A DNA stretch of 64,000 nt from Tetraselmis striata (lineage: Eukaryota; Chlorophyta; Chlorodendrophyceae; Chlorodendrales; Chlorodendraceae), in NCBI GenBank assembly GCA_006384855.1, contig VCJN01000188.1, forward strand, positions 124,001 to 188,000, written 5' to 3'. Below, piece by piece: positions 1-62,070 of this stretch (the stretch's first letter is position 1; each line of letters starts with the position of its first letter). The notes beneath the pieces are model-generated. The model saw only the letters and a program-made list of their open reading frames with translations. It did not search any database and was not told the DNA's origin. The position numbers and the translations under genes are program-made.

Positions 1-568
1 GTGAACCTTGAGGAACACCACGTACGGCACCGAAGCTACATTGTACTTCTCGGACACGTCATAGACCTCCTCCGCCTCTACCTGCAGGCAGCACAAGGAT
101 GGGCAGCTTAGCAACAGTGCCCAAGGCCTGACGCGGGAAGTTCACGCAACATGGGTGCGTGTGGGTCTAAGTGTGGGCAGGTGTGAGGGCGAACAGGGGG
201 GGGGGGGGGGGGGGGGGCACCCGCACAAACTTCATGCCGCTGTGCTCCTTGGCCAGCTCCTCCAGCACCATGTCCATCTGCTTGCACGGTTCGCTCCATG
301 CCGCCCAGAAATGGCAAACCACCTGCCAGAGCCAAGGCGAGAGCCAGAAGACGAGAGGCGGGGGGGGGGGAGGGGTGGGGGGGGGGGCTGAAGGCGTCTA
401 TGGCATGTGTGAGGTTGCAGACTCCCCACAGCGCGATGTCCTCTGTCACCCCTAACAAGTACCTGGGCTGGGCTGGGCTGGGCGTCGCATCATAGAGAGA
501 GTGGGGTGTAGATGAGGGCGAGGTAGAGCTGAGTGGTTGCGCACGCGAGGGGGGTGGAATCAAGCAGG

Positions 569-599
<31 letters not shown>

Positions 600-686
600 G
601 GGGGGGGGGGCGCGCCGCACCGTTGGGCTGCCAAGGACTGCTAGGCTGAACTGCACCTTGGACGTCACGCTCTCGACGGCGGCCAT
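1..686 (-). CDS. GRX3/GRXS17-type monothiol glutaredoxin, N-terminal thioredoxin part (partial)
   Basis: Three exons read on the minus strand: 686-621 (starts MAAVESVTSK), 322-221 and 81-1, where the window cuts the gene. Both joins are phase 0 with GT-AG borders. The joined product aligns residue by residue with the first domain of plant GRXS17 and animal GRX3/PICOT: a VVCHFWAAW strand, a KQMD helix, then VEAEEVYDVSEKYNVAS and a VPYVVFLK strand with the cis-proline. The usual CxxC site is SEPC here, matching the degenerate thioredoxin domain of this family. Family members are cytosolic or nuclear iron-sulfur cluster carriers that act in Fe/S delivery and redox signalling. The monothiol Grx domains (CGFS) would lie beyond the window edge and are not seen. 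Both introns carry a poly-C run (coding strand) just after the donor. The last base pairs could be exon or the next donor (AAG|GTTCAC). Confidence 0.9.
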
Positions 687-7160: not shown

Positions 7161-7189
7161 GGATCTCCGAACCGTTTTCGGCAGAACCA

Positions 7190-9573: not shown

Positions 9574-11309
9574 ACGCCTCTCGACTGTGCTCAGCTGTTC
9601 CGACCGAGCTCGGCGGCTTCCTGGGACGCATGGCGGGTGAAGGGGCCGCCGCTGCAGGAGCCAGGTGCGGAGTCCCAGGGTGAGGAGGCGGAGGGGTCGT
9701 TTCGCAAGAGCGGCGGGGTTGCTGGTCTGGGGCTGATTCTGGGGGCGGCGGGAGTCGCACTGCTGCTGGTGTTGCTGCCGGCGCTTAGTCACGTCAAGTC
9801 GCCCGGTTCTACCGGTGCCGCCGATAGCATCGCGCTGATCAGCGACAGCGACCTGCTCGTGCCGGAGGCCGTGGCTGTGCCCAGGATGCAGCTTGAGCGG
9901 TCCTTGTCTGGCCTGGGTGACGAAGTGGCTGGCGCCTTTCGGGCGGTGGCGGCGCCTTCCCCGCTTGTCGGTGGTGGGCACGCCAGCGCCGGGCCAGCCG
10001 CGCCGGCCGCGGGGACTTGCGAGGCGCGGAACGTCACCTGCCGCACGGCGGCCTGCAAGCAGCTGCCGCGCGGGCGGCCGCGCTCCATCCCGCTTGTGAA
10101 GCTGGGCTTCCCGATGCACATGACCACGCGCGTGCCGCGGCCGATTCGCTTCGGCGACATTTTCGTGGACGCCACCAACGCGGGGAGTTTCCGCTCCGTC
10201 AGTGCACGCCTGCTGCCCTCCTCGCCTCGCGCTCTGATGGGGAGGCACAGCTTCCAGAGCTGCGCGGTGGTGGGCAACAGCGGCAACCTGCTGCTGGCGA
10301 GCTACGGCAAAGAGATCGACGCGCACGATGTGGTGTTCCGCGTCAACCAGGGGCCCACGCGCGGCTACGAGAGGCACACTGGCGCCAAGACGCATTTCCG
10401 GCTGCTCAACGCCTTGTGGACCGCCGAGTACGCCTTCGGCAGGAGGTGCGCGCAGGCAGTCGAGGTCAACCCTAACGCGGTCCTAGGTATCGATCCCCAG
10501 TGAGGCAGGGGCGTTCGTCCGGCCAGCTTCAGATGGCGCAGTGGCCATTTCGCACCGTGCTCCCCCCCCCCCCCCCCCCCCCCCCCGCGCGCGCCTCGGC
10601 GACTCTCGTCGCCCCTCGTCGCAACATAATTCCCCTGTCGCCCCCGCCCCGCTCCCATCTCGCAGCCTTCCTTTGGAGAAGCGCGTGGTGCTTATCGCTT
10701 CGCGCGGCGCGCAGCTCAAGCGCAACTTCGAGAAACTGACGCGGGTGATGAAAGGCAAGCGGCCCGACGTGCAGACCACGCTGTTGCAGCACTCGGCGCT
10801 CTCGCGCACGCGCGCACTGCTGGGTGCCTTCAAGCGCTGCGCGGCGGCGGGCGGGAAGAAGTACGTCGGCGGCGGGGTGCCCACCTCCGGCCTTGTGCTC
10901 ATCTACAACCTCAAGGTGCGCGCCACGAATGCATGGCAGCGTGAGACCTTCCGATCCCCCCCCCCCCCCCCCCCCCCGCCCCATCCCCCCCCACCCCACC
11001 CCACCAGAGTCGCGCAATCGCCGTTGGCGCATGCTCACGCTTACGCTTCTGAGGCTGGCGGCCGTGCGGCTGGTGGTGGCTCGGCAGGACGTGTGCCGGC
11101 AGCTCTCGGTGTACGGCTTCGGGCGGGACAAGGTGGGCGGCAAGCTGCCCAAGTACCAGTACTACATCGGCGCGGACTCCCGCAAAGTGGGCAACCCCAC
11201 GCACGCCTTCGCCGCGGAGCTGGACCTCATCCATGCGCTGGCGGCAGGCGACCACGTACGCGTCTGCGACGGCGGCAGCTGCGTCGGCACGGGCAAAAAC
11301 AAGGCGTAG
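9574..11309 (+). CDS. GT29 (sialyltransferase-family) glycosyltransferase 1
   Basis: Three exons: about 9574-10499, 10666-10915 and 11088-11309 (TAG). The joins agree in phase (2 then 0). The product has the type II Golgi layout: a hydrophobic anchor (VAGLGLILGAAGVALLLVLL), a proline/alanine stem, then the catalytic domain. Motif L is clear in SCAVVGNSGNLLLASYGKEI and DAHDVVFRVNQGPTRGYE. Motif S crosses the second intron (GGGVPTSGLVLIYNLK then DVCRQLSVYGFG), and the HAFAAE segment fits the H-x4-E of motif VS. GT29 enzymes move sialic acid or, in plants, related keto-sugars such as Kdo from CMP donors in the Golgi; the substrate here is unknown. The start is unresolved: the open exon runs from a stop at 9571-9573 with no in-frame ATG before the anchor, so a short first exon or another initiation codon is needed. 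Both introns carry C-homopolymers, and another follows the stop codon directly. Confidence 0.88.
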
Positions 11310-12220: not shown

Positions 12221-12360
12221 CTAGCTCAGCGTGATGTGGTTGTCCTTGTACACCAGGATGGCGCATTGCGTGCTGTGGAGCGTCTTGGCGATCCACTCGG
12301 GCAGCGTGCGGTTGTTCGGGGCCTGCAGCGTGGGGGGGGCGCAACCCGGGTGGTGGTGGT

Positions 12361-12391
<31 letters not shown>

Positions 12392-12588
12392 CACAGCTTT
12401 TCACCGACTTAATTCATGTTTCCTTAATAAAATCGACGATATTCACGATGGCATGAACAGCTGATAGCAATGGCAACGTGATCCGCAAGACCATGAAACC
12501 CTCTTCTTCACAACATGTCCAATCTAAGTAATCGATAATCGAACTCGGTTGGGTGATTATTAGTGAAGTGGGTATGAAGCAGGTGTGA

Positions 12589-12624
<36 letters not shown>

Positions 12625-15600
12625 CTTCCTCCGCACCTGCACGGCCAAAAAGTGCGCCTCCACGCCCTCCGACGCCCGCGGCAGCGACTCGTGCGGGTGA
12701 CCCAGCAGCGCCTTGGTGACGGGGTGCAGCCCCATGTCGCGCACTTGGTTGTTGAAGTGGTCCAGCACAAACTTGGACGACGTCTTCTGGCCCTGCGGTG
12801 GTGGGCGAGGCGGCGACGCAGAGCACCCGTCAGCCCGTTGCATCACCCCAGGCACCGCCCACCCCAAAGCGGCCAGATACGATATCGAATCATGCCACCG
12901 GGAATATCATGATGGCGGAGTTAATACACCACTGCCATCAAGACATCCTCAATCACAGCCGCGAATCACTCAAAAACGTGCCGGGTGCGGTCAGCACGCA
13001 ACACGTGCCGTAACACTTAATTGGGTTTGCCAGTTGTTATACAATCAACGGTTTTTTGCAGCAACGAGTCGGAAGATCCGTGTGATATTCGCGTTCTATT
13101 CTGATATGTTCCAAGGTAAATAATATATGTATATATATATGTATATATATATATGTATATATATACCATATATATGTATACATGCATATCCATACATATA
13201 CATATACATACATATGTGTATATATATACGTAAACATATATATACATATATGTGTACATACATACTATATAGTTTCCCTCTTTCTGTTTCTCTTTACGGC
13301 GGGATTGAAAACTACAGTATATCACAAACCCAAAGCGTAGGTTTACGGTATGCGAACGTCAACATTCTACATCAGCAGCCATGGTGCTTTCTCGCCTGTC
13401 CAAAATGTCCAGCTTGGATGCCAAGTCCTTGCGTCCGATTGTGCCCGAGACAAAAGCGAACACGGACAATGACATATATGCCCAGGGATTGAATGAGGAT
13501 TGAGGCTCGACGAAGGGCAGACACCCGGCGGCCAACTTGAGCCGAAAGACGAGAGGAGGAAGGGGGTGATGGGTTGCCTCGGGCCCCGACCTGCTTGTGC
13601 TCGTCGATGCCGTCCGGCCGCGCCAGCACCATGATGTCTTGTCGGTGCTTATAGTCCAGCAGGGAGCCCACAAACTCCACCAGGCGGCTTGCCGTCGGCG
13701 TGACGTGCACGCAGGCACGGATCTGTGTGCGCGCGTGTGCGGGGCAGGCACAGGAGGTTCAGGGATCACCGCCGACGTGATAAGGCAATAAGCGAGTAGA
13801 CTGCGTTTTTGGACCGGTGTATTGGGAATCGAGGAGATGGCGCCAGAAACATGCTGGTTTTGGAGCAGCTGCATTGTAGAGCGCAAATGCTCCGAAACCA
13901 TGGTGCATGATCAGCAAATCGGTTTTGGAGCGTATTAGATCGCAAGATATTCGATGTTTCAGAGTATGTAAGGGTGTCACAGCTCCAAATAACCAAACAC
14001 AAGCCCTAATACCCCTGACCCCTGGCTGGCAGGTACTTTAACACACTTTAGTCTGACGGTAATAAGTGTGGAATAAACAGAGTTTGGGATTCCAGTACTG
14101 ACAGTCTCGGGGGGGGGGGGGGGGGGAGGAGGGGGCAGGGGGGTGGTGGGGGGGGGGGGCTGTGCACGGTATGCTGCGCGCCGCACCTTGTTGCGGTCCG
14201 AGGAGAGGTACTTCCGCAGGTCTGTGCGCTTGGTGTCGTCCTTGACCACCAGGATGGGCAGCGAGAGCGCCTTGAGCGCCGTCAGCGTGACGGAGCCCAG
14301 CCGCCGCATCTTGCTGTCCTGCTCGTCAAGTTGCGGCACGGTGAGGGCGGCGGCAAGAGTCAGAGGGAGGCAGGCCCGGAGGGTGGCTACGCTTTGGTGT
14401 CATGGTTCCCGACTGACCCCCCCCCCCCCCCCCCCCCCCCCGCCCCCCGCCCCCCTGCCCTGCCGCCCCCTGCACACTCCCAAACTTCCCAATGTTGGGC
14501 ATACGGTATTAAAGAAGCATTTAAGGAAAAGATTAGGACAATTCCTTGATGTAAAACGGAGCTTTCTGGAAACCGGACGTTCTTCTATGAAGACGACTAA
14601 ATAACAGATAGAAGAAAGGCGAAGAGGGGCCAACGCATGCGGATGCTGCACCAACAGTACTATAGGAGGCGGAGGAATGCGGGCGTGTCCTAGCTTTGTG
14701 GGTTTATGATTTGGTTTCGATGAACGTAGCATATTGCTCGCGACCTTTTTGGGACAGCCAAACCTCAGATTCTGAGTTAGATACATAAACACTATAATTA
14801 CAATGCAAGACAGTATATTGGCCGCTCCTGGAAACCCTAGGTATCGGACCAAATCCTGCATCGCTGGGGGCACCCTTACCGCTGCCAGGCTGGAGGAGCC
14901 AAACACAAGCAGCCGCGCCTTGACCTTCTGCGCGTAGTCGCCCATGACGTCGTGCAGCTTGGCCTCGCCGCGCACGAGCACAGATCGTGTGGTGTTGAGG
15001 CCGCCGAGCGTCTCGTTGTAGAAGCTGTCGAGCATGTCCTTGGCGGCCTCCTCGTTGTGCTGGCTGCGCACGCTGGTCACGATGTGCCAGTGGTCGCGCG
15101 AGGAGATGGTGCTCTGCATCCAGTTGGACACCAGGTCCCATGCCTGGACGGGGCGGGGGGGCAAGGGGGGGGGAAAGAACATGGCAGACAAAGTTAGGGT
15201 TTCAAGGGATGGAAACCCTAAAATTCTCACCCACGGAATTGATCCTAAGAAAAACAACAAATCTAGCTAATGCACGTTGTGAATGATAAGATTTAATAGT
15301 GGCAGTGGGAACACACACAAAAATGGAATTAAGAAATCGCAATGTTGCTACCCTCGAGCCCCTGGGACAGCGGCGCCAGCTAAGACTGCTCCGAAACCAC
15401 ATCCACCATCTGAGGCGCCGTCGAAGCCACATGATGTGCCCCTTGATAACCAGAACCATAATAACCATCAGGTTCCACACATCATTGGCACTATCGATGC
15501 TGCTCCGGCTCAAACAACCATACACATGTAGCGACTAGGCGTTCCCGTCCGGCCCATACGGGGCGCGTCGTCACTGCGTACGAGTACCCGATACACTAGC

Positions 15601-18600
15601 GTAAGTACTGCAGCCTATCGAATTACATCCAAACTCAAACGAGTGTCGCGAACTCGCGATCAAGCCCTAACTCCGCCGGGTAAAATCTCCCGGGTACCTG
15701 TACCGCTTTGAGATCTTTGCCCCGTTTATTTCGACGACGGCCGTCCCATTTTTTGTCGCGAGATGTATTGCGCAACACACTGATAGTATTTAGCACAGAC
15801 TAGGAAAGGGTTAGTCCGGTACCAATCTTACCGACACAAAGTTGCCCCGGCAAATTTGGTGACGCCCAAGACCGTGACCGCGCCGGATTGTTTATTTTCC
15901 TACTCGATAATTATTTCAATATGAAAGTGAAATAAAATCTTACACTGCACCAATAAAATTAACCAGGCTTGGTGGCGTAGTGCACGAGGAAAACCCAATA
16001 TCGTCAATAATCATTTTATATTCAATCAGACACGCCGTGACCGGGTTTGCTTCCACTTATCGTCTTGGAGCCCCCCTTCCCCCCCTTCCCACCACTATTC
16101 ATTAAGGCGAGAAGCCGTGCTCGAAATAGAAAGGGACACATCGCAATAAAGCGCAAACACACCATCACATATGTTTCTTGCCAGCAGGGTAGATGCCGCA
16201 ACAAAAAGGGTCGCTGTATTTTGCAGCCAGGGCCAAGGGTAGACTCAATTTAATAGTAGGTAGTAACACAAGTACAATAGCTCGGATTCGGAACTGCATG
16301 GTTTCGGAGCACTAGGTGTCGCAGATTGGTATATATATATTGCTCTATATATCGTTCAAAACCAACCTCGAATACCAATGGTATGCTATAACGTGGTCAC
16401 TCAGATAATGCTCCGAAACCATTAACAAGGGGCAGGCGTGCTGGGCGGGCGTTGTATACCTTGTGGGAGGCGGCGTTATCCGTGACGAAAAAGACGATGA
16501 TGCGCGGCTGGTCCATCATCTTCTTCTTGTACTGTGAATATCGGTCCTCGTGCTCCGCGGGCGCCAGCGTGGCAGACATGTCCTTGATGTAGGTGCCCAC
16601 CACCGCGCGCACGCTTGGGTCCTGGTCCATCTGCCGGAGCACCTGGCACGTCTCCTTGCCCCACCAGAAGGGGCGCACCACACTGGCCGGCAGCGGCGTG
16701 CGGCTGCGCAGCGCGAAGCAAAACCCATGCTCCGCGCTCGTGAGGTCCGACTGGAAGCGGCGCGGGTACACCGCCGCGCCTGCCGCAACATGTTGAGAAC
16801 ACTCAGTGTGGCATAATTGATAGCTCGCAGCAGAAAAAGGAAATGGGCAAAAATAATCCGTCTCTTGACAAAATCTGACTAGACGACGAGTCCATAAATT
16901 AGCGCACTACCCGCCTGCTGTTCTAGAGAATTGAGGGGAATTCTTGCTGGAAACGCGGCCATTGCGCATGGATTGATTGTGGTGATGTCATGTTTTCTCA
17001 ATTTGGATAGAGCCTGGCCATTTGAACAGCGCAAAATGTCCAAGATTTGTCCAAATGGATAAAACATGACATCACTGGTGCGTCATTATTCGAAGCGCAG
17101 TAGTGGCCGGGTACCAGTAGGTTAGGCTCAGCTGCCCTCAGAATGCCCCGCCGAAAAGACTTAAAGAACTGTTCGGTGCCAGTATGGTAGGTCCGAGAGA
17201 GCGCGTATTTTCATCGGAATAGCCGCGCGCCGGTAGTCGCTACATTGACACTGGCAGCGGCGGCGCAGCCACGCACCTGCCATCTCCAGCGTGACGCGGA
17301 AGAGCGCGCGCTCCTGCAGGATGATCGACAGATTGGGCACGTAAAAGTAGTAGCGGTTGGTGCCCACCATCAGCTTGCCGCGGCTGCGCTTCCGCAGACG
17401 CTCGAGGTCCGCCACGACGTGCGGGCTCAGGCACTCGTGCACCTTGCACAGCATCGCCGAGGTGGAGCCCTTGTTCTCGCCCTTGGGCGGCTTGATGAGC
17501 ACGCTGCCGCGGAACTGCATCTCCGTCACGCTCGTCACCTCCGACACCTGCCGCGACACGGCCAAGCGCAGGGGCAAACATCAATGGCGCGCTCTGCGCG
17601 CCCTCACCCGTCGCCATGCCTCGCGCCAAGCGGGGCACAGGGGCCAATGGCACCGCCCGTATATGGCAACATCCATTTCGAACGCCGACATGAAATCAAC
17701 AACACTGCGAATGGGAAGCTGCCCTCGTCTGCTTTGTCTTCCCAGCCCAGGGTCTTTTCCCCTCATTCAGGAAAAGCTGAACGTACGACGAGGGGTGGAT
17801 TTTTTTTGGGGGGGGGGGGGGGGGTGGGGGGGGGGGGGGGGGGGGTTCCACCTCGACGCCGATGTTCGCGCCGTGGGTCTTCTGTTCCCGGATGGACATG
17901 GCAAACGCGATGGGGTCCAGGGTACCGCCCTTGGAGATCGCCTGCGCGGAGCCACAGCAGAGGCGCACGCCACGAGGCTCGGCATCGTCAGCAGCTCGCG
18001 GCCCCCGGCCCTTGTACACTTCCCCATCAAAGACGACCCCCCGTGCGCGCGAGAAAAAGGGCGCTCTGTCGTAGCCGTCGCAATGCCCAGCCAGGTGGAA
18101 AAGGCGCGAACCTTGATATCGTCCAGGTGAAAGCTGTGCATCCACTGCACCTTCTTCTCCTGCAGCGACGACAGGATGGTGGTCTTGCGCTTCTCCGTCA
18201 CTCCGCCCTGTACCATGGCACCGCCAGGATCGGGTCAGGAGGCGCCTAGGTGTGGCCAACCCCTGCCTGCCTGCCTGTATTCGTATTTGCGTGTGTGATC
18301 CTGTTGGGGGGGGGGGGGGGGGGGGAGGGGGGCTTACCGGCAGGAAGCCGATCGAGTCGTATGGCACCATCAGCTGCTGCATCGAGTAGCCGTCGCCTCC
18401 GCTGGTGCAGACGCTGCTCTCATCCTGCGGCCATTGACGGCACAGTTGCGGCTGCTTACACCTATCCAGAAAACACAGCTGCCGCGGGTTGCCAAGGCAC
18501 AGGACTGTGTTGCACCATCAAGCAAAAGGTTTCGTGGTGTATTTGTGTCGTATTTGCCGGATAGTTTCCAGATATAATGCGGAATGGGTAAAAACGACAT

Positions 18601-21600
18601 TGAAGCGACCCAAACACACAACCCCAACAAGTGCGCAACTTGTCCCAATGATTATTTGTTAATAAATGCATAAATGTATCAAATAAATGTTCATATAATT
18701 GCAAGTTCGGAGCTTCAAGGCTTGAATTGTTCCCTTGTCCGAGTCCTGACGACGCAGTGTTGCCTCTTCGGAAGGGGTCAAAACAGCAATCGGTAGCGAC
18801 AATAATAGCGCGTCCTTGTCAATAGCCCATAGGATCCCGCCGATAATAGTGCGACCGGGAGGGATATACACAAAGACACCGCTACGGGGGCCAGCGCGCT
18901 CATAAGGCCGCTGCGAGTAAGAGCCCGCCATGCCTGGCAGAGGTCAAATCTAGGCAAAAACCATGGCCTTGGAACTACAGCAAATATTCTTATAGGTTCG
19001 ATGCATCCCCACTATTCGGATATGATAAGGACTCCTTATAATATGCATGTCTGTATCTAACAAGTTGCATCTAAGAGGTATCTAAGAAGTTGTATCTAAG
19101 AAGTATGCGCATCTGATATTTGTATATCTCTACATTATGTATATGTATATACACACCCGCACACACATATATATACATATTCAGTCATATGTATACATAC
19201 ATATATACATAGACACATACACATATACATGGTAGATATGTATATATACATGCATACGTTTATATACACACTTATATACATACATGTATACATATATCTA
19301 TCGGCCTAACAGCGCGCAGGGATAGTTCTGCTATTGATGTGATCTGCCAGGACGCATGCGGGGCATATTGGTACGGCGCAGCTGCGCCGGCGGGGACGGG
19401 GGGGGGGGGGGGGGGGGGGCACCGTCTGGAACATGTGCATCTCCTCGTTCCAGACGAACCCCTTGGCCTCTCGCGCCGGCACGATGAAGATGTTGCTCTT
19501 GGAGAAGCCGAAGTAGCTGTTCTCCACCAGCTCCGCGACCGTGCGCTCCACGTCGACCTCCCGCACGTGCAGCACAATGGGCGTGTGGTTGAGGCCCGGG
19601 TGGCCCGCCAGCCCCTTCACGCAGAGGCACAGCCGGATCATCACGCGCCGGAAGAAGGAGAGGCCGAGCAGGCGCTCGCACGACGGGACCTGCGGGAGGG
19701 GGGCGCCGACCACTGTCAGCGTCCATGCGCCGACCAGCCCAACGCGCGCGGCGCCTCGGCATGCCGCTGACGCGAGCCACACGGTCGAATCTTGTCCGCG
19801 GTTCCCACAGACGATGCAGCGTTACGCAGCGCCGAGTTAGGATACCCATGCAGGGTTCATTTCGCATCATGATAATATCCAGCACACTGCAATGGTGCGA
19901 AGATAAAGATAGGTACTCAGTCAGCTATCTTCATTAGGGAAGGGGGGGGGGGGGGGGGGGGGGGGGGGCGGGTGAAGCAACCTAACCTTGACATCGAACC
20001 CACAGCGTGGTTATGATGGCATTCTCCCATCATTTGAGGACTATGGGGGTATGTAGTCATGTATGGGTATCGGTGAACATATGAAAGAAACTTTCCGCTG
20101 ACATACCGCAATGTCCGCCGCAGGGCCCGGCCAGCACAGCGGCACCGCCGGTGTCTCCAGCAGGCTGATCCGCCCGGGTATCAGCCGCACATTGCCGGTG
20201 CCAGGATGGTTCCCACATATGCACCCGTTGCTCGCCGCGGTGCCCTCGCTCACGGGGTATATCGTGTTGGCAACCAGCAACGGGTGTGACGGCATACGCA
20301 CGGGATGCGCATCGTAATTGCTGATGCAGCAAGTTGTGCATACTTAGTCCGGTTCCGCTATTCAGACTTCCTTCGGTAACACGCACGGCGGTGGAAGCCA
20401 CCACACACTGCTACGTTCCCTGCTGAATACGAATGACTTGTATCCTCCTTCATTGATACGCTCCCGGAAATGCCGTCAGCACACGGTGCAGGCACGGCGG
20501 CGCCGCTCCGTGCGGAAGGGGAGGTGGGGTTGCCGCACCTGGTCGGGCGCCGCCTGCTCGCACGCCTTCCAGGGCCCCATGTGCACCATGGTGCAGGTGT
20601 CGCCGTTGGGGTACAGCGCCATGAACTCCGCGCAGTGGACCTGTCGCCAGCACAGCAGCGCATGTCAGGCCAGCGCCCCCCCGACCGAACCTCCCATCCC
20701 TCTGCCCGCGCCCCCCCTGGGCGTGCCGCCACCCGCGTATGCCCCCTCCTGGTGTGCGGCCAGCGCACCTGAAAGCACAGCTTCCCCTCCGACACCATCT
20801 CCTTCACGTCCGCCTGGTACGCCTTGAGCTCCAGGCCGCCCGCGTGCGCAAACGCATCGATGTCGTGCACCTGGCGCGGCCGCGAGAGGGGTGCGCGCAC
20901 CGGTCAGCGGGACACCCGTGGCCTAGCCCCGCAGCATCAAACTGCGACTGCGGATCATCGGATCTACGGGTGCCGACCTACATACAGGAACCCTTACAAA
21001 TAAAAGCCTCAAAGTGGAGCTGTATCCACCTAAATAGCACTCGCTACAGTTTGGCTATAGTTTCGTCTATGCTTGATCTCTGGCAGACAGGGCGGGCTGT
21101 GGTTTCATCACCGCGGCGGCACCCATACATGCTTATTGTGTGCATTCGTGCACCACACGTCTGTAATATTAGCTCGACTCCCATGTTGCCGTCAATGGGG
21201 GAACTCGGGACGGCAGCTGCGCGCACTGATGAGCGGGATGAGGCATGTCGGCAAGCCTGAGGAAATGGAGGGGGGTGGGGGGGGGAGGGAGCTCACCGCG
21301 GGTGCAGCCAGCTTGGTGTTGTGTAGAAAGTGAGAGTTGGCCCGGTTCATCATCATCTGCATCGTGTTGCCGATGTCCTGTGGGCACCAAGAAGGGGGGG
21401 GGGGGGGGGGGGGGGGAGCAGTCAGCACCATTCTTCATCATTTGGGAGCCAGGGGGCCCTCTTCGCCAGTACGGGAGCCGACGCGGTTATACAAAAACGC
21501 TGCGGTCACCAACCTGCCCTATACCTGTCAGACGATATCAAATGTAGACGAAACTATAGCGGACGTGCCCTTCAATATCGCAAACGTTCCCTTGGGTTGC

Positions 21601-40184: not shown

Positions 40185-40500
40185 GTAAATATAATATACA
40201 TATGTATATGCGTATGCATGTACATATGTATGTATGTTTGGTATGTATGTATGGCCACATACACCCGCATTCACATCATTGAGTCTGATGCCGTACCCGG
40301 CATGGGCATTCTTGCGCAGCGGCTGGCGCAGTGCCGGGCGTCCTGTATGGCGCGCCGCACGGCGGCCTGCCGCGAGCAGTTTGAGGGCGGCTGCGAGGCG
40401 CAGTGCGGGCGCCACCTGTGCGTGGAGGGCAAGTGCCGCTGCCCTGTGTACTTCTCGGGCGACCCCATGTGCGGCTCGGTGCGTCCCCCCAGCCTTCAAC

Positions 40501-40531
<31 letters not shown>

Positions 40532-43460: not shown

Positions 43461-43519
<59 letters not shown>

Positions 43520-46800: not shown

Positions 46801-47007
46801 GAAGGCTACATATGGAATACCCCCATATGCTTGGTGGGCGAATACGCACCGGCGTCCGGGCCCGCGGCAGTCCGCGCCATGTCGGAGGTTGCCTCCATGT
46901 ACCTCCAAGGTCGCCTGCCCGGGTGGTTCAACCGGCTCTTCGCCTCTGCTAGGCTCGTGGCACCTGTCAAGAAGCTAGGCGAGGGGAGGGCCCCGGACGT
47001 GTAGCCT

Positions 47008-50115: not shown

Positions 50116-50947
50116 CACATCCAGAATTTCATGATTCGGCACCATTCGATCGATCACATGCGCGTCACCTCGATCCAGCGGTCCAGCCACACTGCTCGCA
50201 CAGACACGTCCGCCGTCGTCCGGTCACCGGTGCTAGAAAGCACACCACCAGCAATACCTTGCCGCCAAACTACGCGCCTGGCCGGGCATCAGCGGCAAAG
50301 GGCCGCGCCGCCAGCCCGGCGCTGCTGGCCAGGTCGACACACCCCATCATCCGTCTGCAGGTGCTTCAAATCCGGGCGCGGGAGCAGCGTGGGCCGGGTT
50401 GGCCCACCCTCTGGCTGGAGTGCCCCGCGCGAGTGGGGCGGGGGCGGGTAACAATCCCTCAGCACGCGCAGCGGCAAACCCCCTCACGGCTTTTTTAAAT
50501 TGGATGTATAAATAAATTCGAAAACCCAAAACAACCACCACAGAGGCTACCGATACGTGTACTAGTGGAGGGGCGGCACCAGGCAGTGCAGCCGCGCAGG
50601 CGCCACGGTAGTGGGCTGCGGGAGTTGACACTGTGATGGAGGTGGCGGATCCGGCAGGTTCGCCCCACACACCGTCTCGCCCCCCCCCCCCCCCCCCCCC
50701 CCCCAACCCCCCAATCCGAGCCGTCGTGTGAGATGGGACGAGTAGATGACATCCGCTGTCATCTGCCGCGCCACACGTCCTTCCGCGCGCGGTGCGCGCG
50801 CGCCATCATCCACCCACCCGCCCTCGCCTGCCCTCACCATAGCTCCACCCCCTGCTTTTCTCTGCCCTCCTGCAAGGCCCAGGCGGGACCGAGGCGTCAG
50901 ATACAGGATCGATACCCAGGACGGCGGAGGCGGGCGGGCTCTCGCCG
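50116..50947. other. Upstream region of the bromodomain gene
   Basis: GC-rich, with a C-homopolymer at about 50681-50704. It probably holds the promoter and 5' untranslated region of the gene starting at 50948. No TATA box is evident. Confidence 0.4.
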
Positions 50948-53234
50948 ATGGAGTGCTCGCCGGGTGCGGGCGAGGCGCCGGAGGCCGGCGGCGGCTTGAC
51001 GGACCGGCCAGCCGCCGACGAACCGGACCCCGATCCGGGCTGGCGATCTGCCCAGGAAGCGGTAGAGGCGGCGGTGGCAGAGGCGGGAGCGAAAACGGAC
51101 GCGGGCGCGGGTGAGGACGCGGGGGGAGGTGAGGCCTGCGCTGTCGTCTGGCCTGCGAGCGGCGCAGGTGTAGCACCGTCGCGGCGATGCTGGCCGGATT
51201 GTAAACGTTGCGCTCGGCGACCAAGCGATATTTACCATTTATATACTTATTCATTATTGTTTCGGTTACGCTTGGTAACCAAACACCAACGCTTAGTGAG
51301 AGGAGGCTACAACTATCTCCAAATAGTCTTATATAATGCCTCGGAAGTTTTTTACTTGATGATATAACGGCGATGCAGGCGCTGCAAGGGTTTCTCTGTT
51401 GCCATTCCTCTCCCGGTGGCCTTTTATGTGTTGGGGGGGGGGGGGGGGAGGGCACTTGCTACTCTCGCTGCTATTCATGCGCGTGAGTGAGGGGGTAGGG
51501 TGGCGCCTGTGGTGGTATGTATGGTCTCCATCACAAGAAGTGAGAGACGGATGCCGCGGTGTGATCTTTAGAATGATGGCGCTGAGGAAAGGAGGCAGGG
51601 GTCCCTGGGGGGGGGGGGGGGGGGGTGCTGCGCGGGGGTGAGCCAAAGTCTCCGGCGTCTAGCCCCAGGGCTGGCTGGCCCGCCATTGAAACCGCTGTGC
51701 ACTGGGTTGCGGGCAGGCTTGCCCGGGGAGGCGGGGCCCTCGGGCAGGACGGCGGCGGCGGCGGAGGCGGGGCCCAGCGGCAGCGCCGGCGTGCCGGGCG
51801 GCGCGGCGGCATCCGCGGAGGACGCGGAGCTGCTGCGCCAGCTGAAGGTGAAGCTGAGCCAGGGCGCGGCGGCGGTGGACCACCTGCAGTACCTGGTGAC
51901 CAACCTGCTGGCGAGCCAGGCGCGCGCGGCGGGGCGGCGCGCGGCGGGGCAGGAGGGGGACACGCTGGGCGCGGCGGAGCGCAAGGCGCTGGGCGACGCG
52001 CACCGCAAGCGCGTGGGCGACATCCTGGGCAAGCAGTGCCTGAGCGTGCTCAAGCACCTGCAGAACCACAAGTGGGCGTGGCCCTTCAACCAGCCGGTGG
52101 ACACGCAGCAGTTCAGCGACTACCTGCGCGTCGTGCAGCGCCCCATGGACCTCGGCACCATCCGGCGGCAGTCCGAGGCCGGCCACTACCGCGACCCGGA
52201 GCAGTTTGCCGCCGACATGCGCCTCGTCTTTGCCAACGCCAAGACGTACAACCCACCGGGTGCGATCCCCCCCCCCCCCCCCCCCCCCCCACTGGTCGCC
52301 CAATGACAGCATCCGATCCCCTTTTCCACTCTGCTTAGCCTACCGCTGGCTCCCTTCCTGCTGCATCCACAGCCGTGGTGCCCCCCCGCCCTCCCTGCCG
52401 CTAGATGGGGCTTAGCCCTGGCTCTCAATCCCCGCAGCCCACGGTGGCATCTCCAGCATCTTGTTCCGCTGCACCTAGCGCACGACGCGCTCCACCCATG
52501 CCGCAGCCGCTGCCCCGCTGACCCCCCCCCCCCCCCCCCCCCCTCTCCCCCCCGCGGCCCTCCCGTGGGTGGCTGTGTCGGCAGGGAGCGACGTGCACGT
52601 GATGGCGTCCACGCTGAAGGCGCGCTTTGAGGAGAAGTGGCAGCAGAGCGTGGTGCCCAAGATCGCGGACGAGATGAACACGTCGCGCACGGAGGAGGCG
52701 GCGGCGCTGCAGCGCATGCGCGAGGCGCTTCGCGCCAAGGAGGTGGAGGCCTTCCAGCGCAGTGCCGCGCAGCTGCTCAAGCGCATCGAGGTACGGCGCC
52801 AGCCCCCCTGTGTTCCTTACCTCCCTCCAGCCCCGCCACCTCCCGCCACCCAACGGTGCCTGCTGCCGCCACTGCCATCGCCTGCTGGCCGCCCACCCAC
52901 AGCCTCCAGCTGCGCACCCCATACCCAGCCCTCTCCAGCTCCCTGCCTCTCTCTTCCCACTCCGCTGCCACTGGCCACTCAGCCCTAAACCCTAAACCCT
53001 GATACTGGCAACCTGGTGATACCACTGGGGATGTACCACCTGGCAGGGGCCCGGGGCCGGGGGGAGGAGGAGGCTGATCAAATCCAAAAGCGGAGTGCTA
53101 CATCAAACCCTAACTAAAGCCCTAAATCCACGGCGTGACCTTCAATAGTAGCCGTAACCCTGAACCCCCTGCATTCTCCCTTTCCCTTGCTCCACCGGTG
53201 CCCATGCCGTCCTAAGCCTCTGTACATGTCCAGC

Positions 53235-53266
<32 letters not shown>

Positions 53267-56041
53267 AGAGAGAGAGGGAAAGAGAGAGAAAGAGAAAGTG
53301 GGGGGGGGGGGGGGGGGGGGGCTTCAATGCAGGCAGCCTCAAGGGCCGCGCAGAGGACACAAGGTGGGGGGATGGGCATCACCCCGCCCCTTGGGTGAGT
53401 GGCTGCAACCCCGGAATGTAAGGTAGCAAGAAGAAAGCCCTGAAAACCCTACGTTTGAAACCTACACCCTATGCGACACCCGGGGCAGGAGGGGCTGGGG
53501 GGGGGGGCAAAAACACCCTAATTGAATTCAAAAGAAGGGCCGCATTAATCCCTTAACTATGTGCTCCATATCCAAACCTACCATATCTATCTACCGGTGG
53601 GTGAACCTGGGAGCTTAGCGTCCGCCGCCCCCCCCCCCCCCCATCCCGCAAACGCTCCCTCTGTGTAACACCTTGGGCAACTCCTGGAGCGGACTTCAAG
53701 AAAACCTAAACGACATACAACCTAGAATAAACGCTGTCTTTTCAGGGTGTGATTTCGGCTGATGAGATGTCGGCCCCCAAATGCCCCCATTGTAAGGGGC
53801 CAAATCAAATTCCTTATCACATCCGAAAGCCAGGACCTTAAGTAAACCCTTAAAGCCCTAAACGTAACAATGACCCTACACTGGTGTGTAGAGTGGGCTG
53901 AGACACCCCCCCCCCCCCCCCCCCCGGCCCTCTCCTCTGCGCGGCAGGCGCTGGAGAGCATCATGTCGGAGTACAAGAGCGCGGCCGCGGCGCTGTGCCG
54001 GGGGATGGGCCGCGAGGAGCGGTGCGCGCTGCAGGCGGCGCTGGAGGCGCTGGAGGGCGCGGGGCTGGAGGGCGCGGCGGCGCTGGCGGCGGGGCAGCAC
54101 CCGGGCCTGGCGGCCGAGGGCGGCGCGCTCGCGCTGGACCTGGACGAGCTGGACGCGCTCACGCTGCAGCTGCTGCGCCGCTACGCGAGGCACGCGGGGC
54201 CGCCGCCGCCCCCGGGCGCAGGTGAGCCGGGCGCCGCAAAGCCCCCCTGCCCCCCCCCCCCCCCCCCCCCACCCTCCCCCCGGCCCGCCCACTTTCTCCC
54301 CCTCCTTCGCCTCCGTCATCTCCTCCCCTCCCCACTCCTCTCCCACCTCTTCCCCTCCCCCCCTCCTCCTGCTGCTGCCGCCGCCTCCGCCTCGGTTGCC
54401 GCGCTCGCCAGGTTTCGGCTCCGGGAAGGCGCCCGCCGCTCGATGCCCGTCGCCACGAGCACCCACCCGTCCCCCACGGCGCCCCCCTCCCCCGCCTCTC
54501 ACACAAACGGAGACAGCCAGTCTCTCGCTCACTCCCGCACCCCGCCCATCCTATCACGCGTCTGCTCCCTGCTGTGCTAGTACCCGGGTACCGGTCCAGA
54601 CACCGCGCCATGCACGGCTACCCGGACACGCGGAATCGCGCAGACTGTCCGGTGGAAAGGTCCGCTAGTCTCTATTCGTGGCGGCAATCACATGCATAGT
54701 GGCGTTGCCCAGACCCGTGCCTCCGCGGAGCTAGGAGTAGACGTGCTGGCAGGTCAGTGAAACATGGGGGGGGGGGGGGGGGGGGGAGGAGGAGGCATAC
54801 CGGACGCAAGGCGCCTCTACCCCATGGCTCGATGGGCTCGGGCTCGCAACCGTTTGTGCCCCGACAAGCCAACCAGCCGACCACCGAACCACCTCTTGCG
54901 GTGAGGGCATTTGAGCACGCGCAAATCGGGGACAACTAGCATTACCTCGAATTTCACCAGAAACCACCTCCAGGACGCTCCCCGTCACACTCGGTGCGCC
55001 TGCAAAGCAATTCATTGCTGCGCAGGGGGGGGGGGGGGGGGGGGCTGGGGGAAGCGAACCCCTACTCTGAATGGCACACAGCGGTTCGGGAGTGGGTTGC
55101 GCCAGTAGCGCACAGCAGACCGTGACCCGGGTACCGTTGCAATCATCGGACCCAGACACCCGGGTGCCGATGCACGAGTGCAATGGCCGTAACCATTATT
55201 TGGGCTCGCGGTGTATTCTTTTGCCTGAGCGCAGCTTGCAGGAACGGAGATGGGAGAAGTGGGGGGGGGGGGGGGGGGGGGGGGGGGGAGGGGGGCATCG
55301 GGCGCTGCCCTGATGGTCCCGTCACTCACTTCTCCATCCCCCCCGCCCCTCCCTTACCCGCTCCTCCTCCCTTTCCTCCACCCCTGCCCCTACCCTCTCC
55401 CAGGGGAGGGCGGCGCTGCGGCGGAGGCCGAGGCAGCGGCGGACTGGCCGGGGGTGCTGGTGGCGTCGGGCATCAAGCGGTGGGCGCCCCCGCGGAGCCT
55501 GCGCCTGGCACGCAAGGCGCTCAAGGCGGAGGAGTCGGCAACGGCAGCAGCAGCAGCAGAAGGGGGAGCAGGAGGAGGGGGAGGGGCAGAAGGCGGGGAG
55601 GGGGCAGAGGGGGAGGGGGTGGTCGGCGCGGACATGAAGGAACAGGGGGAGGAGGCGGCGGAGGGGGCGGGGGCCGCCGCGGAGGAGGAGGCGGAGGAGG
55701 AGGAGGAGGGCGTGCGCAGCGGGGGGTTTGCGGCCGCGCGCGCCGCGGCGCAGTCCAGCAACGCCATCTCCGCCATGGCGGGGGGCAGCGCGCCTGCGGC
55801 GGAGGCGGCGGAGGCGACGCCGGCGGCAGTGGGCGGGGAGGCGGAGGCGGCGGAGGGGGAGGGCGCCAGCAAAGGCGGCGACAACGGCGCCGGCGAGGAG
55901 GCGCCGCTCGTGCCCGCGCCCATCCGGGCGCCGCTGCACGACTCGGTGTCCTCCGCCGGGCTGGCGCCCGCAGCCGGCGACAACATGGAGACGGAGGTGC
56001 CGGAGGCAGCGGCCGCCGCCCAGCCGCCGCCCGCCGGCTAG
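50948..56041 (+). CDS. BET/GTE-type bromodomain transcription regulator
   Basis: Five exons: 50948-51128, 51717-52259, 52585-52790, 53948-54221 and 55404-56041 (TAG). All joins keep phase and give about 613 residues. An acidic, glycine-rich N-terminus precedes one bromodomain (about residues 163-265). It shows the WPF shelf (AWPFNQPVD), RPMDLGTIR in the ZA loop, and the acetyl-lysine-binding Asn in TYNPPG; the domain crosses intron 2. A basic/coiled segment (MREALRAKEVEAFQRSAAQL) leads to a NET domain (GREERCALQAALEAL to LDLDELDALTLQLLRRYAR). The C-terminus is Ala/Glu-rich low-complexity. One bromodomain plus NET is the plant GTE arrangement; animal BET proteins have two bromodomains. The expected role is reading acetylated histones in the nucleus. 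A TGTAA occurs 11 bases after the stop. Introns hold many C- and G-homopolymers. Confidence 0.92.
52983..52998. repeat. Interstitial CCCTAAA repeats in intron 3 of the BET gene
   Basis: Two consecutive CCCTAAA units, with further degenerate ones (CAAACCCTAAC, AGCCCTAAAT, GTAACCCTGAA) at about 53103-53165. Confidence 0.8.
53234..53321. repeat. (GA)n microsatellite followed by a G-run
   Basis: GAGAGA and GGGAAAGA units in intron 3 of the BET gene, ending in a G-homopolymer. This run is poly-G on the coding strand, against the usual polarity. Confidence 0.9.
54222..55403 (+). other. Intron 4 of the BET gene, homopolymer-rich
   Basis: 1.18 kb between the NET exon and the last exon. It holds a C-run shortly after the donor and G-runs at about 54765-54786, 55026-55044 and 55260-55288. 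No extra exon is convincing, although the CT-rich first half reads open by composition. Confidence 0.6.
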
Positions 56042-58216: not shown

Positions 58217-58806
58217 GTGCCGTGTCGGCGACACGGAAGGCGAGACCGTCGACAATCTCCTCCTAGTCCCGGTCCACATCCCAGCCGTTGTCTGGAAGCG
58301 TCCGTCCGTCGGAAGCTGGGGTTGTTTGTCGTTATCCGTTCCAAAAACCCCCAACATTGCATGCGAGACTGGCTGCGCGCAGTCAAGCCGATCAGGGGCG
58401 AATCCATGGAAGACTCGGACTCAGCCGTGGCCGAGATTTTCCGAATTGCAATTAAAGAAGGTCATGCATCGACCACAATATGAAAACGGTGCACGGCGGG
58501 ACATTCATGGCGTTACTCGCGCAGGTACTGCGGGCGCAATGGCCGGGATGCGAGGTGCACATCCTCCCGCTTCCCCTCATGATCCGCTCAGCGGGCACCC
58601 CGCACAAGCGTCTGACACAACTCGTGCGCCCCGGTCGCTCATACCCACCCGAGGCAACCCCGGCAGAGGTCGCCCCCCTCCTCAAATGCATGCATACCCA
58701 TGCGGTGAAGTGGTTGTACATGATGCTACACGTGCACAAAGTCGAGCACCGCGGCACACACAAACGCAAAGTCAAACGAGCCAGCAAACGGAAAGCTTCG
58801 GGATAG
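58217..58806 (+). CDS. Two adjoining hypothetical ORFs
   Basis: ORF 58217-58483 ends in a protein-like stretch (VVIRSKNPQHCMRDWLRAVK, IRGESMEDSDSAVAEIF). ORF 58480-58806 starts within its stop (ATATGA) and contains MALLAQVLRAQWPGCEVHI and a basic tail. The balanced composition suggests real or formerly real coding sequence, perhaps from a transposable element. I recognise no family and see no splice structure. Confidence 0.3.
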
Positions 58807-59073
58807 CCTGCCACATGTGCTCGCAGTATGACAACGCCTCTGCCCCGCCACCCGGAGGGCGGGGGTCGGGGGGACGACACCACTCCCTCTTAGATTAGAG
58901 ACATGGCGCCTTTTGAGGGCTGCACGCTACGCGCTGTCAGTAGTGGACCCTGTGCGGGGTCGGGCAGCCGCGCTGCACGATAGCTGGCATGTTCAGCATC
59001 AAAGGCGAAGCAGCAACCGAGCTGTACGAACTGTCAGATGTACGCTCATGGCGGCTGGCGCGTAGCCCAGGCG
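58807..59073. other. 3' flank of the quinone oxidoreductase gene
   Basis: Downstream of the minus-strand stop. No TGTAA signal is visible close to the stop on that strand. Confidence 0.4.
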
Positions 59074-62070
59074 CTACGGCCAGATGGTCAGCACCAGCTT
59101 CCCGGCAGAGCTGCCACTGACGCGCCCCTCCGCGCGCCCCATCGCGCGCTCAAACAACCCCAGCACCTCCTCCGCGCCGCGCGGCCCCGCCAGCGGCCCA
59201 AACTCCCGCTCCACCACCGGCCGCAGCCGCCCCGCCTCCACCCACCCCGCCAGCTCGTCCAGCGACTCGGAGCTCGGCTTCTTGAACAGGATGGCGTACT
59301 TCTGGCCGGTGACGGCGCCGCGGGCGGTGCGGCCCAGCAGGCGCAGGATGGTGTCGGCGCTGCGCGCGGGCGTGATGGGCTCGCCCAGCCGGCTCTCGGT
59401 GTCGCCCACGATGGAGATGTAGCGCCCCTTTGGCGCGAGGATGCCGCGGCTGCGGGCCGCCACCCAGGCGCTGCGCCCGCCCACGCAGTCGTACACGACG
59501 TCGAAGGCGCGCCCCGCCAGGGCCTCCCGCCAGTCCACCGACCGGTAGTCCACCGTCTCGTCCGCGCCCAGCTGCTGCAACAGCTGTCCACAAGGCACAA
59601 AGGGGTCGTGTCATAGCGCGCGCGCGTGTGTGTGTGTGTGTAGCGGGGGGAAGGGGGGAGGGGGGGGGGGGGGGGGGGGATAAGAATTCTTGCTCAGGAA
59701 AAGATCCACTTTCGGGCCTCGGGGGTCTGGGTATGTGCTGTGAGGTTTCGGGCGGGGACATAGTAAGTTCTCGGCGGACCACGGAATTGTCGCGGATGGG
59801 CCGTAACCTCGTATCTGGGGCATTCACGGCGGGGTGGGGGGGCTCGTAACTCGGCCCGGCCGTCATCGAGGGTGGACACTTGAGCGGTTCGCGTCAATGG
59901 CCGCGACCTGGAGATATAAATCGTCGAGGTACGCGGGCGCTGTAAAGATCAAGGCCATGACGCGATCCGACCTCACCGGACCCCGCCCAGTTCTGGCGGC
60001 ACTGAGTTCGCTCCGTGCTAGGTATGACAAGACATCAGCCTGTGAAGAGGAGGAAAGCTTGATTCAGTTGTGACAACTTCCTAATTACGATCCGTGTTGA
60101 TGATCGGTGCGTTCGACACATCGGCACGGAAAGGCCGAGACTGTGGTCCGATCTCGAGCTGCCTGACGCATCTGCTCTTCGTTACCCTGTTGACGGGAGC
60201 GGCTTGGTGCGAGCCCGCACGCCACGCGCCCCATCCCCACCAGCCCATAGCGGCTCCCCGCCAGGGTCGGCCGCACACAGAGCTTGGCTGTGGCCCAAGG
60301 GGCGGCGTCGCACCTCGTGGCTGCCCGCTGCGGCGGTGGTGCAGACGGTGGCCGCCCCCAGGGCCTTGGCGATCTGGATGCCGGCCGCGCCGCAGCCGGT
60401 GGCGCCGCCCAGCAGCAGCACCGACTCCCCAGGGGACAGCCCCACCTGGCGGAGCGCCTGCAGCGAGGTGCTGCCCGCCACTGGCAGCGCGGCCGCCTGC
60501 GCGTGGCCCAGGCTCGCCGGCTTCAGCCCCACCACCGACGCCGGGGCGGCGGCGTACTGCGCAAAGGCCCCGTCCAGGCCCGTCAGGTCCGCCCACACCT
60601 CCCGCCTGCCGCAGCGGTGCAGCGGCATCGGCATGCCGTCAGCTGCTGCTGCGCATGTCGGGCGACCGACGCCCACTCGCGTCATCACCATCAAACAGCG
60701 ATGCGCTATCGCTCCCGGAGGGTCCCGGAGGTGTTGGGACCCTCCGGGAGCGATAGCGCATCGCTGGCAATGCTCTGCCGTCGTCGACGCTGTGATTCCC
60801 ACCAGACGAATCGGAGGTCGATGCGCTAGCGCATCGATATCGTCACCATCAAGCGAGGACGGAGGTGTGGCCAGTGCGCCTCATACACCTGATGCACTCA
60901 GCTTTTTTACTTCATCAAACATCCGCAATGTCTCGGGCATTCATTCGTCATCTCATATCAACGCGGATTCGAACATGATGCTGTGTCGATGCCAAACCCA
61001 GTCGCCACTGCGGGTGCGGCCGCGGTAATAAGAACACCAATGCGAATACAAACCCGCCCGGCCCGGCAGTCGTCGAATTGTGGACGCAACTATCGCGGGA
61101 CGATAGCAAAGGTTCGCATATGTTTCCTGCATGCCCAATTTGAGGCTAATGATAAATGTTACTGTAGGTGCGTCAGCACCGGACAGATACTTAAATGGAT
61201 GTTTCCCGAGGCTTAGCATTGGGAGCCTCCGGGTGCTGAAGTCGCGTCCGCACCTGTGTGGAGGCAGTGCGAGGGTGGTGCAGAGGGGGGCAAGGGGAGG
61301 GATGGTACGCACCCGAGCAGCGCCTGCGCGGCCGCGCCATCGCCGGCGTCGACAACGGTGCCGCTGACCTCGGATGCCGGCGTGACGGGCAGCTCCCGCT
61401 TCTGGGGGGTGTGCGGGTGTGTCCGGGGCGAGTGGGGGGGGGGGGGGGGGGGAGCGGAGCATGATTGGGTGCGCATGCGCCAGTGTTAGGATGTGCATGC
61501 GGGGCGCCCTGTGGTGGTGGGCAGTGCACTCCGTCATGGCGTCATGGAAAACGGGGGGCGCCCCCGCGCCGCTGGTTGACAGCGTACCGCAAGTACGTGC
61601 CGGGCTCGCCATACATCGTTGCTTTCGACCCCCGCGAAGAGGGAAAGCAATCAGAACAAGCAGCAATAGAACTTGTTGTACATAACGAGAGTGAGGGGGA
61701 GGGGTAGAGGGATTCCATGACGCAGCCAAGGTGCATGTCGCGAAAGGGCCGCGTCATAACTGCAGTACACTATGAAGCCTCCTAAGAGGGGGGGGGGGGG
61801 GGGGGGGGGGTGTTCACGTGCATCGACCAATCATGCACAGGCAGTCCGCCTCTGCATGCTGCAGAGCGGTGTATCACTTGAAGCCAGCCAGACGGTGCAG
61901 CGGGGTAGATGCAGGCGACTGTCCCCACCCACCTGCGTGCGCCAGTAGAAGCCCGCCATGCCCTTGTGGTCCGCCGCGTTCAGCGCGGCCGCCTCCACTC
62001 GCACCAGCACCTCGTCCTCGCGCAGGCCGCCCTGCCCGGGAACCGCCACATCCGCGCGGACCTCCAGAAC
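59074..62070 (-). CDS. Zinc-free quinone oxidoreductase / MDR-family reductase (5' end missing)
   Basis: Four exons are recognised: 62070-61933, 61401-61313, 60605-60314 and 59583-59074 (TAG). All phases agree and give about 342 residues. The GroES-like half has VLEVRADVAVPGQG, EDEVLVRVEAAALNAADHKG and PVTPASEVSGTVVDAG. The cofactor half has LPVAGSTSLQALRQVGLSPG, the NADPH-binding loop LLLGGATGCGAAGIQIAK (normally GGAGGVG), then GADETVDYR, AFDVVYDCVGG and GRYISIVGD. The ending SAGKLVLTIWP matches the family's last strand (GKLVL). No zinc-ligand cysteines are present, as in QOR-type reductases that reduce quinones or enones with NADPH. Only the first 10-15 residues, with the start codon, are missing; they should be on an exon above 62071. 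Introns carry homopolymers at about 59659-59679, 61436-61452 and 61789-61810, all poly-C on the coding strand. Confidence 0.9.
60696..60766. repeat. Perfect 31-bp inverted repeat in an intron
   Basis: 60696-60726 is exactly complementary to 60736-60766, with a 9-base loop. It lies between the 61.3-kb and 60.6-kb exons of the reductase gene. The GATGCGCTA block of the arm returns in the palindrome GATGCGCTAGCGCATC at about 60819-60834, and TCACCATCAA occurs on both sides (about 60685 and about 60842). It is probably a small palindromic transposable element. Confidence 0.9.

What the first reader, a model, noticed from the sequence alone, without database searches (positions are those of the whole stretch)
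1..62070. Long C-homopolymers mark introns and are mostly poly-C on the coding strand
Most larger genes here carry G/C homopolymers in introns, close to a splice site. Examples (read as C on the coding strand): 196-217 and 583-610 in the glutaredoxin gene; 10562-10586 and 10956-10977 in GT29-1; 12592-12624, 18306-18330 and 19400-19419 in the large minus gene; 52267-52290 in the BET gene. Many begin within 5-30 bases of a GTGCG-type donor; others (about 21395-21416) sit where a polypyrimidine tract would be. Exceptions exist: about 22443-22462, 51433-51448 and 55260-55288 are poly-G on the coding strand. The strand bias suggests selection for C-rich RNA (splicing) or against G-rich RNA (G-quadruplex), or a transcription-coupled expansion process.
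Basis: partly seen in the sequence, partly recalled or inferred. Interest (0 to 1): 0.75.

Follow-up and report, generated by a model that had tools for sequence, protein, structure and literature searches.

The report
C-runs clustered at algal intron starts
This alga-like genome carries very many 12-35-base runs of G or C, densest in introns; close to splice sites, above all just after the intron start, they nearly always read as C in the RNA, while deep inside introns they face either way.

Summary
The window has 54 G/C runs of 12 or more; by my gene models 42 lie in introns (32 C, 10 G on the coding strand), 11 between genes, 1 in an exon. In 264 kb around it introns hold 67 C to 28 G; composition alone predicts about 0.16 runs in all, 130 are there. 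The bias is local: within 60 nt of a splice site 46 C to 7 G, deeper 21 to 21, similar under six gene-model settings. Genome-wide (224 Mb), CAGGTGCG followed within 30 nt by C12 or G12: 346 to 107; at 200-230 nt: 148 to 129. Introns without long runs are also C-rich after the donor (C 38%, G 26%). Best reading: strand-blind, G/C-only slippage enlarges seeds beyond about 8 bases; C-rich intron starts supply C seeds; exons purge runs; G runs at donors may also be selected against. Whole-intron R-loop, quadruplex or transcription-coupled bias is not supported. Caenorhabditis is the known parallel; density here is an estimated 80 times higher.

The parts
196..217 (-). C22 on coding strand, 3 nt after donor of intron 82-220 (glutaredoxin gene)
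   Evidence: glutaredoxin domains in the model
583..610 (-). C28 on coding strand, 46 nt after donor of intron 323-656
10562..10586 (+). C25 in intron 10446-10665 of the GT29 gene (116 nt from donor, 79 from acceptor)
   Evidence: Glyco_transf_29
10956..10977 (+). C22, 40 nt after donor of intron 10916-11087 of the GT29 gene
12592..12624 (-). C33 on coding strand, 12 nt after donor of intron 12323-12636 (large minus gene); second C17 at 12375-12391
14109..14159 (-). C18 and C12 on coding strand in intron 13723-14186, 60 and 27 nt after donor
14417..14441 (-). G25 on coding strand, deep in intron 14319-14879 (exception)
17808..17845 (-). C20 and C17 on coding strand, 6 and 27 nt after donor of intron 17548-17851
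18306..18325 (-). C20 on coding strand, 12 nt after donor of intron 18208-18337
19398..19419 (-). C22 on coding strand, 3 nt after donor of intron 18425-19422
21394..21416 (-). C23 on coding strand, 16 nt before acceptor of intron 21378-22480
22443..22462 (-). G20 on coding strand, 18 nt after donor of intron 21378-22480; the only G run within 30 nt of a predicted splice site in 264 kb
23912..23930 (-). C19 on coding strand, 5 nt after donor of intron 23638-23935; C22 at 23808-23829 and C13 at 23658-23670 (20 nt before acceptor) in the same intron
39252..39284 (+). C14 and C17, 10 and 26 nt after donor of intron 39242-39367 (second GT29 gene)
40500..40517 (+). C18, 21 nt after donor of intron 40479-40886
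50680..50704 (+). C25, 22 nt after donor of intron 50658-50745
51433..51448 (+). G16, deep in intron 51129-51598 (exception)
52267..52290 (+). C24, 7 nt after donor of intron 52260-52584 in the bromodomain gene; second C22 at 52522-52543, 41 nt before acceptor
   Evidence: Bromodomain
53906..53925 (+). C20, 22 nt before acceptor of intron 52791-53947
54250..54270 (+). C21, 28 nt after donor of intron 54222-55403
55261..55288 (+). G28, deep in intron 54222-55403, with G21 at 54766-54786 and G20 at 55025-55044 (exceptions)
61434..61452 (-). C19 on coding strand, 32 nt before acceptor of intron 61402-61932 (zinc-binding dehydrogenase gene)

Best explanation
Two layers. (1) A genome-wide, strand-blind mutational process specific to G/C homopolymers: once a G/C run passes about 8 bases it tends to grow to about 20 and is capped in the twenties to thirties. 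Probable agent (inferred): replication slippage with too little correction of G/C loops, the cap being set by loss of quadruplex-prone tracts. (2) A splice-local composition: the first 40-60 nt of introns are C-rich and G-poor compared with the exon just upstream, less clearly so before acceptors, so the seeds there are C. Exons purge runs. Together this gives C on the coding strand near splice sites and no bias deeper. Shown: length distribution, G/C specificity, intron enrichment, locality of the bias, C-rich donor zone without runs. Inferred: slippage, the cap, why the donor zone is C-rich, and an added selection against G runs (or for C runs) at donors that would account for the extra factor of about two genome-wide.
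For: G18 start positions 394,668 on both strands against 897 for A18 in 224 Mb. Chance that a C run extends by one base rises from 0.30 at length 3 to 0.93 at 8 and 0.97 at 9-14, then falls to 0.71 at 22 and 0.20 at 28; G is similar, A and T lie at 0.2-0.5 through length 9, where only a handful of longer A/T runs remain. Density 95 in 76.5 kb of intron, 33 in 125.3 kb between genes, 2 in 62.2 kb of exon. C:G 46:7 within 60 nt of a splice site, 21:21 beyond, Fisher p = 0.0001; 41-44 to 7-8 near and 21-30 to 21-26 far in the five other model settings. Position: 25 of 95 intron runs start within 30 nt of a donor (24 C, 1 G), uniform placement expects 6.7, maximum 16 in 5000 trials. Genome: 346:107 at 0-30 nt and 148:129 at 200-230 nt after CAGGTGCG, p = 2e-10; 145:66 after CAGGTGAG. 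In the 264 kb the seeds of 6-9 bases show the same bias by distance, Mantel-Haenszel odds ratio long against seed 1.03. 101 introns without any run of 9 or more: C 0.383, G 0.260 at 6-40 nt, skew 0.19 (0.13-0.25). Exon side of donors: C 0.319, G 0.348.
Against: Genome-wide, exact 6-base seeds after CAGGTGCG are only 332 C to 216 G, against 346:107 for long runs, odds ratio 2.1, p = 1e-7: seeds alone do not explain the bias there, though many of these motif copies are not donors. The acceptor-like motif CGCAGG shows no bias (758:756), a weak test because only 36 of its 299 local copies are predicted acceptors. The reversed motif used as control by the tool was itself skewed (C12 64, G12 17 upstream of GCGTGGAC). 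Deep introns still carry about three times the run density of intergenic DNA (42 runs in roughly 55 kb against 33 in 125 kb), which layer 1 alone does not predict. Long-run numbers near acceptors are not raised in position (9 within 30 nt, 7.1 expected).
Confidence: 0.58

Rival explanations
1. C tracts just after the 5' splice site are a working splicing element: a poly(rC)-binding protein or the spliceosome uses them to define the intron, and selection keeps them.
For: Positional excess at donors (25 against 6.7 expected); C-rich zone even without runs; long-run bias exceeds seed bias genome-wide.
Against: Only 22 of 181 predicted introns have such a C run; donors with a C run 6-30 nt downstream are not weaker than others (mean score 5.10, n = 16, against 5.12, n = 156, p = 0.67), so no sign of compensation; the same kind of run occurs deep in introns on either strand and between genes.
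Confidence: 0.2
2. Avoidance of G-rich RNA or G-rich non-template strand (R-loops, quadruplexes) during transcription, as Zhao and colleagues suggested for C. elegans.
For: Overall C excess in introns of genes on both strands (35:14 and 32:14), the same direction as 84 to 47 in C. elegans (PMC2211496).
Against: No excess beyond 60 nt from splice sites (21:21), nearly none at 200-230 nt genome-wide (148:129); in C. elegans the position within introns was unbiased, here it is not.
Confidence: 0.1
3. Reversed causation: C runs arise first near donors by some splice- or transcription-linked process, and decaying runs make the zone C-rich.
For: CCCC after donors exceeds what base frequencies predict, 91 against 67.5 in introns without runs and 78 against 46.8 in those with runs.
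Against: Introns without any run of 9 or more have nearly the same C content at 6-40 nt (0.383) as introns with runs, masked (0.401).
Confidence: 0.08
4. Artefact of sequencing, assembly or gene prediction.
For: Homopolymer lengths are error-prone in long reads (general knowledge); no reads were available; introns are predicted, not observed.
Against: An artefact would not spare exons (2 of 130), prefer donors or flip orientation with gene strand; the result holds with runs masked and with GT/AG as the only splice signals; Pfam domains confirm the strand of most window gene models tested.
Confidence: 0.04

Closest known systems
G/C tracts of Caenorhabditis elegans and C. briggsae (Zhao, O'Neil and Rose 2007, PMC2211496)
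   Same: G/C tracts far above chance, not matched by A/T; rare in exons (4 of 396); intragenic tracts more often C on the coding strand (84 to 47) (parts 1 and 2 of 5 of the text seen).
   Different: About 4 tracts of 18 or more per Mb there, an estimated 315 per Mb here; most tracts intergenic there (265 of 396), mostly intronic here; position in introns unbiased there, donor-biased here; orientation bias here is confined to splice-site neighbourhoods.
Length-dependent homopolymer over-representation in 27 eukaryotes (PMC539357)
   Same: Thresholds of 4-11 bases for over-representation, attributed in part to slippage (passages).
   Different: [quoted passage not shown] here long G/C runs dominate.
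Homopolymer slippage in mismatch-repair mutants of C. elegans (PMC5932607)
   Same: G and C runs fall in number up to 8 bp and then plateau to 17 bp; indel rate rises with length to about 10 (passages).
   Different: Here there is a second mode near 20 rather than a plateau, in a wild genome, and no mutation rates are known.
Polypyrimidine tract upstream of the 3' splice site
   Same: Some C runs lie 11-25 nt before the acceptor.
   Different: T is not raised before acceptors (0.21-0.23) and the strongest C signal is after the donor.

Membership tests
Caenorhabditis-type G/C tracts | Runs of 18 or more G/C far above chance, A/T not so | tested here: met
   394,668 G18 against 897 A18 positions in the genome
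Caenorhabditis-type G/C tracts | Nearly absent from exons | tested here: met
   2 of 130 runs of 12 or more in predicted exons
Caenorhabditis-type G/C tracts | Intragenic tracts more often C on the coding strand | tested here: met
   67:28 in introns; 14 genes with C excess, 3 with G excess, 1 tie, p = 0.013
Caenorhabditis-type G/C tracts | Position within introns unbiased | tested here: not met
   25 of 95 within 30 nt of a donor, 6.7 expected
Caenorhabditis-type G/C tracts | Maintained by a DOG-1/FANCJ helicase | not testable with these tools
   needs mutants; the gene was not looked for
Introner elements (introns spread as copies) | Introns share sequence along their length | tested here: not met
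   blastn of 181 introns against each other: few short matches; of the 24 introns with a run of 10 or more near the donor I saw matches for three, one in the C/CA-rich stretch itself and two in a 46-57 base stretch far from the run
Polypyrimidine tract | C and T both enriched before the acceptor | tested here: not met
   C 0.372, T 0.226 at -20 to -6; T is no higher than further in
Transcription-wide avoidance of G-rich RNA | C excess throughout the intron | tested here: not met
   21:21 beyond 60 nt; 148:129 at 200-230 nt

The most novel reading that the evidence does not exclude
Intron definition in this lineage uses a C-rich zone just inside the donor in place of a U-rich or G-rich one, and runaway G/C slippage has turned thousands of these zones into pure C tracts that are kept on the C strand because a G tract there breaks splicing: a mutational process held in orientation by a splicing code.
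Probability: 0.25. Interest if true: 0.8.

Novelty: new variant of a known kind. Interest (0 to 1): 0.55.

Why it matters
If it holds, this genome is a natural laboratory for G/C homopolymer dynamics: an estimated 70,000 tracts of 18 or more, where C. elegans has 396 in 100 Mb and human 200 in 3.3 Gb (PMC2211496). It separates two causes that were confounded in C. elegans, transcription and splice-site neighbourhood, and points to the latter. It also suggests that green algae or their relatives may mark donors with a C-rich zone, which is testable with RNA-seq and reporter introns, and it warns that gene prediction and assembly must cope with such runs.

Tried and rejected
Introner elements: rejected, the introns do not share sequence. 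C tract as help for weak donors: no difference in donor score (178 of 181 introns fall in the three groups compared). Pairing of a G run and a C run within an intron: seen by eye in a few introns only (for example 21378-22480, 54222-55403), not tested. Acceptor test by CGCAGG: uninformative. tRNA and Rfam searches of the window: nothing. Identity of the large minus gene: no Pfam family, no PDB match better than E = 0.35 for 792 of its 990 residues. Papers: ten searches listed none on long C runs at algal splice sites; the library holds only part of the literature.
Full report
What was checked. The window is C149:124001-188000 of an unnamed 224,097,584-base, 2903-contig genome. It has 58 homopolymers of 10 or more, 57 of them G/C, and 54 G/C runs of 12 or more. 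With 200 kb of neighbouring sequence I had 264 kb without gaps, holding 130 G/C runs of 12 or more. Base composition predicts about 0.16. Lengths are bimodal, with few runs of 9-14 and many of 18-25. Genome-wide, G18 occurs at 196,947 plus-strand and 197,721 minus-strand start positions, A18 at 540 and 357. Using the local ratio of 5.59 positions per tract, that is an estimated 70,655 tracts of 18 or more, 315 per Mb.

Gene models. No RNA-seq or annotation was at hand, so I wrote a two-strand hidden Markov gene finder, trained on the sequence itself, with homopolymers and dinucleotide repeats masked and non-coding sequence treated alike on both strands, so that the runs could not choose the strand. 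It settled on 30 genes and 181 introns with donor CAG|GTGCGC-like and acceptor GCAG|G consensus. In all 30 models the coding score on the called strand exceeds the best opposite-strand score.

Strand and place. Of the 130 runs, 67 are C and 28 G on the coding strand of introns, 33 lie between genes and 2 in exons (p = 8e-5 for 67:28). Plus-strand genes give 35:14 and minus-strand genes 32:14; by gene, 14 of 18 have a C excess, 3 a G excess, 1 a tie (p = 0.013). In the window alone: 32 C, 10 G, 11 intergenic, 1 exon. Density is 1.24 per kb in introns, 0.26 between genes, 0.03 in exons. Twenty-five of 95 intron runs start within 30 nt of a donor, 24 of them C; uniform placement expects 6.7 (sd 2.5, maximum 16 in 5000 trials). 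Within 30 nt of acceptors there are 9, all C, where 7.1 are expected, so acceptors show orientation without positional excess.

The decisive split. Within 60 nt of either splice site the ratio is 46 C to 7 G; beyond it is 21 to 21 (p = 0.0001). Five other model settings, one with only GT and AG as splice signals and 10-base padding of the mask, give 41-44 C to 7-8 G near and 21-30 C to 21-26 G far, p from 0.00014 to 0.0018. Genome-wide motif counts agree: after CAGGTGCG (13 of 28 local copies are predicted donors), C12 against G12 is 346 to 107 at 0-30 nt and 148 to 129 at 200-230 nt; after CAGGTGAG (7 of 10 local copies are predicted donors) it is 145 to 66 at 0-30 nt. I used the 'forward' counts, because the listings show that these count once per motif while the reverse counts repeat along each run; this reading of the tool is inferred.

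Controls that did not go my way. The tool's own control, the motif read backwards, was skewed for CAGGTGCG (C12 64, G12 17 on the comparable count), though not for the 200-230 nt spacing (42 and 50) nor for CAGGTGAG (4 and 9); I have no explanation for the 64:17. The acceptor-like CGCAGG gave 758 C to 756 G, a weak test because only 36 of 299 local copies are predicted acceptors. And exact 6-base seeds at 0-29 nt after CAGGTGCG are 332 C to 216 G, a weaker bias than that of long runs (odds ratio 2.1, p = 1e-7), whereas in the 264 kb the seeds match the long runs (Mantel-Haenszel odds ratio 1.03). Part of that gap may come from motif copies in exons, where short runs are tolerated; the rest leaves room for selection against G runs, or for C runs, at donors.

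Why C. The first nucleotides of introns are C-rich with the runs masked: at 6-20 nt after the donor C 0.431 and G 0.259, against C 0.319 and G 0.348 in the last 25 exon bases (introns of 160 nt or more). In 101 introns without any G/C run of 9 or more the zone 6-40 nt still has C 0.383 and G 0.260 (skew 0.19, interval 0.13-0.25); before acceptors these introns have C 0.329 and G 0.308, a weak difference; deep intron is C 0.252 and G 0.263. So the C-rich donor zone does not depend on the presence of a long run, and it offers C seeds.

Why long. The chance that a C run is longer by one more base rises from 0.30 at length 3 to 0.93 at length 8 and 0.97 at 9-14, and falls to 0.71 at 22; G behaves alike, A and T do not. 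That is the mark of expansion past a threshold with an upper limit. Slippage with limited repair is the usual explanation, and passages of PMC5932607 and PMC539357 describe length thresholds of this order; that it acts here is inference.

Setting among known things. The nearest parallel is Caenorhabditis (PMC2211496, parts 1 and 2 of 5 seen, further passages): 396 tracts of 18 or more, 4 in exons, intragenic orientation 84 to 47 in the same direction, but position in introns unbiased. This genome shares the first three features and differs in density, in intron enrichment and in the splice-local orientation. The membership is that of a new variant. Ten paper searches listed no report of it (named in Tried and rejected).

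Open. Deep introns hold about three times the run density of intergenic DNA with no strand bias; younger repeats between genes may be part of the reason (5 runs in 26.6 kb of repeat-covered and 28 in 98.7 kb of other intergenic sequence), but not all of it.

Noticed in passing
window 46998-49636: Reverse-transcriptase-like ORF (699 aa stop to stop; named from its residues by eye, no family search) with a 95% identical 2.6 kb copy at C149:253370-256014 and no G/C run of 10 or more inside, as expected of young DNA.
   Followed up: partly
window 12221-24328, minus strand: Twenty-exon gene model with strong coding signal but no Pfam match and no PDB match below E = 0.35 (792 of 990 residues tried).
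   Followed up: partly
C149:188001-268000 (outside the window): Repeat-rich stretch with a 3176-aa ORF at C149:234100-243627; its predicted introns hold 1 run in 11.2 kb, against 1.25-1.74 per kb in the other three blocks.
   Followed up: no
genome G000: C12 lies upstream of GCGTGGAC 64 times against 17 for G12 on the comparable count; perhaps a repeat family.
   Followed up: no
window 21378-22480, minus strand: Intron with G20 near its donor and C23 near its acceptor, which could pair and bring the ends together.
   Followed up: no
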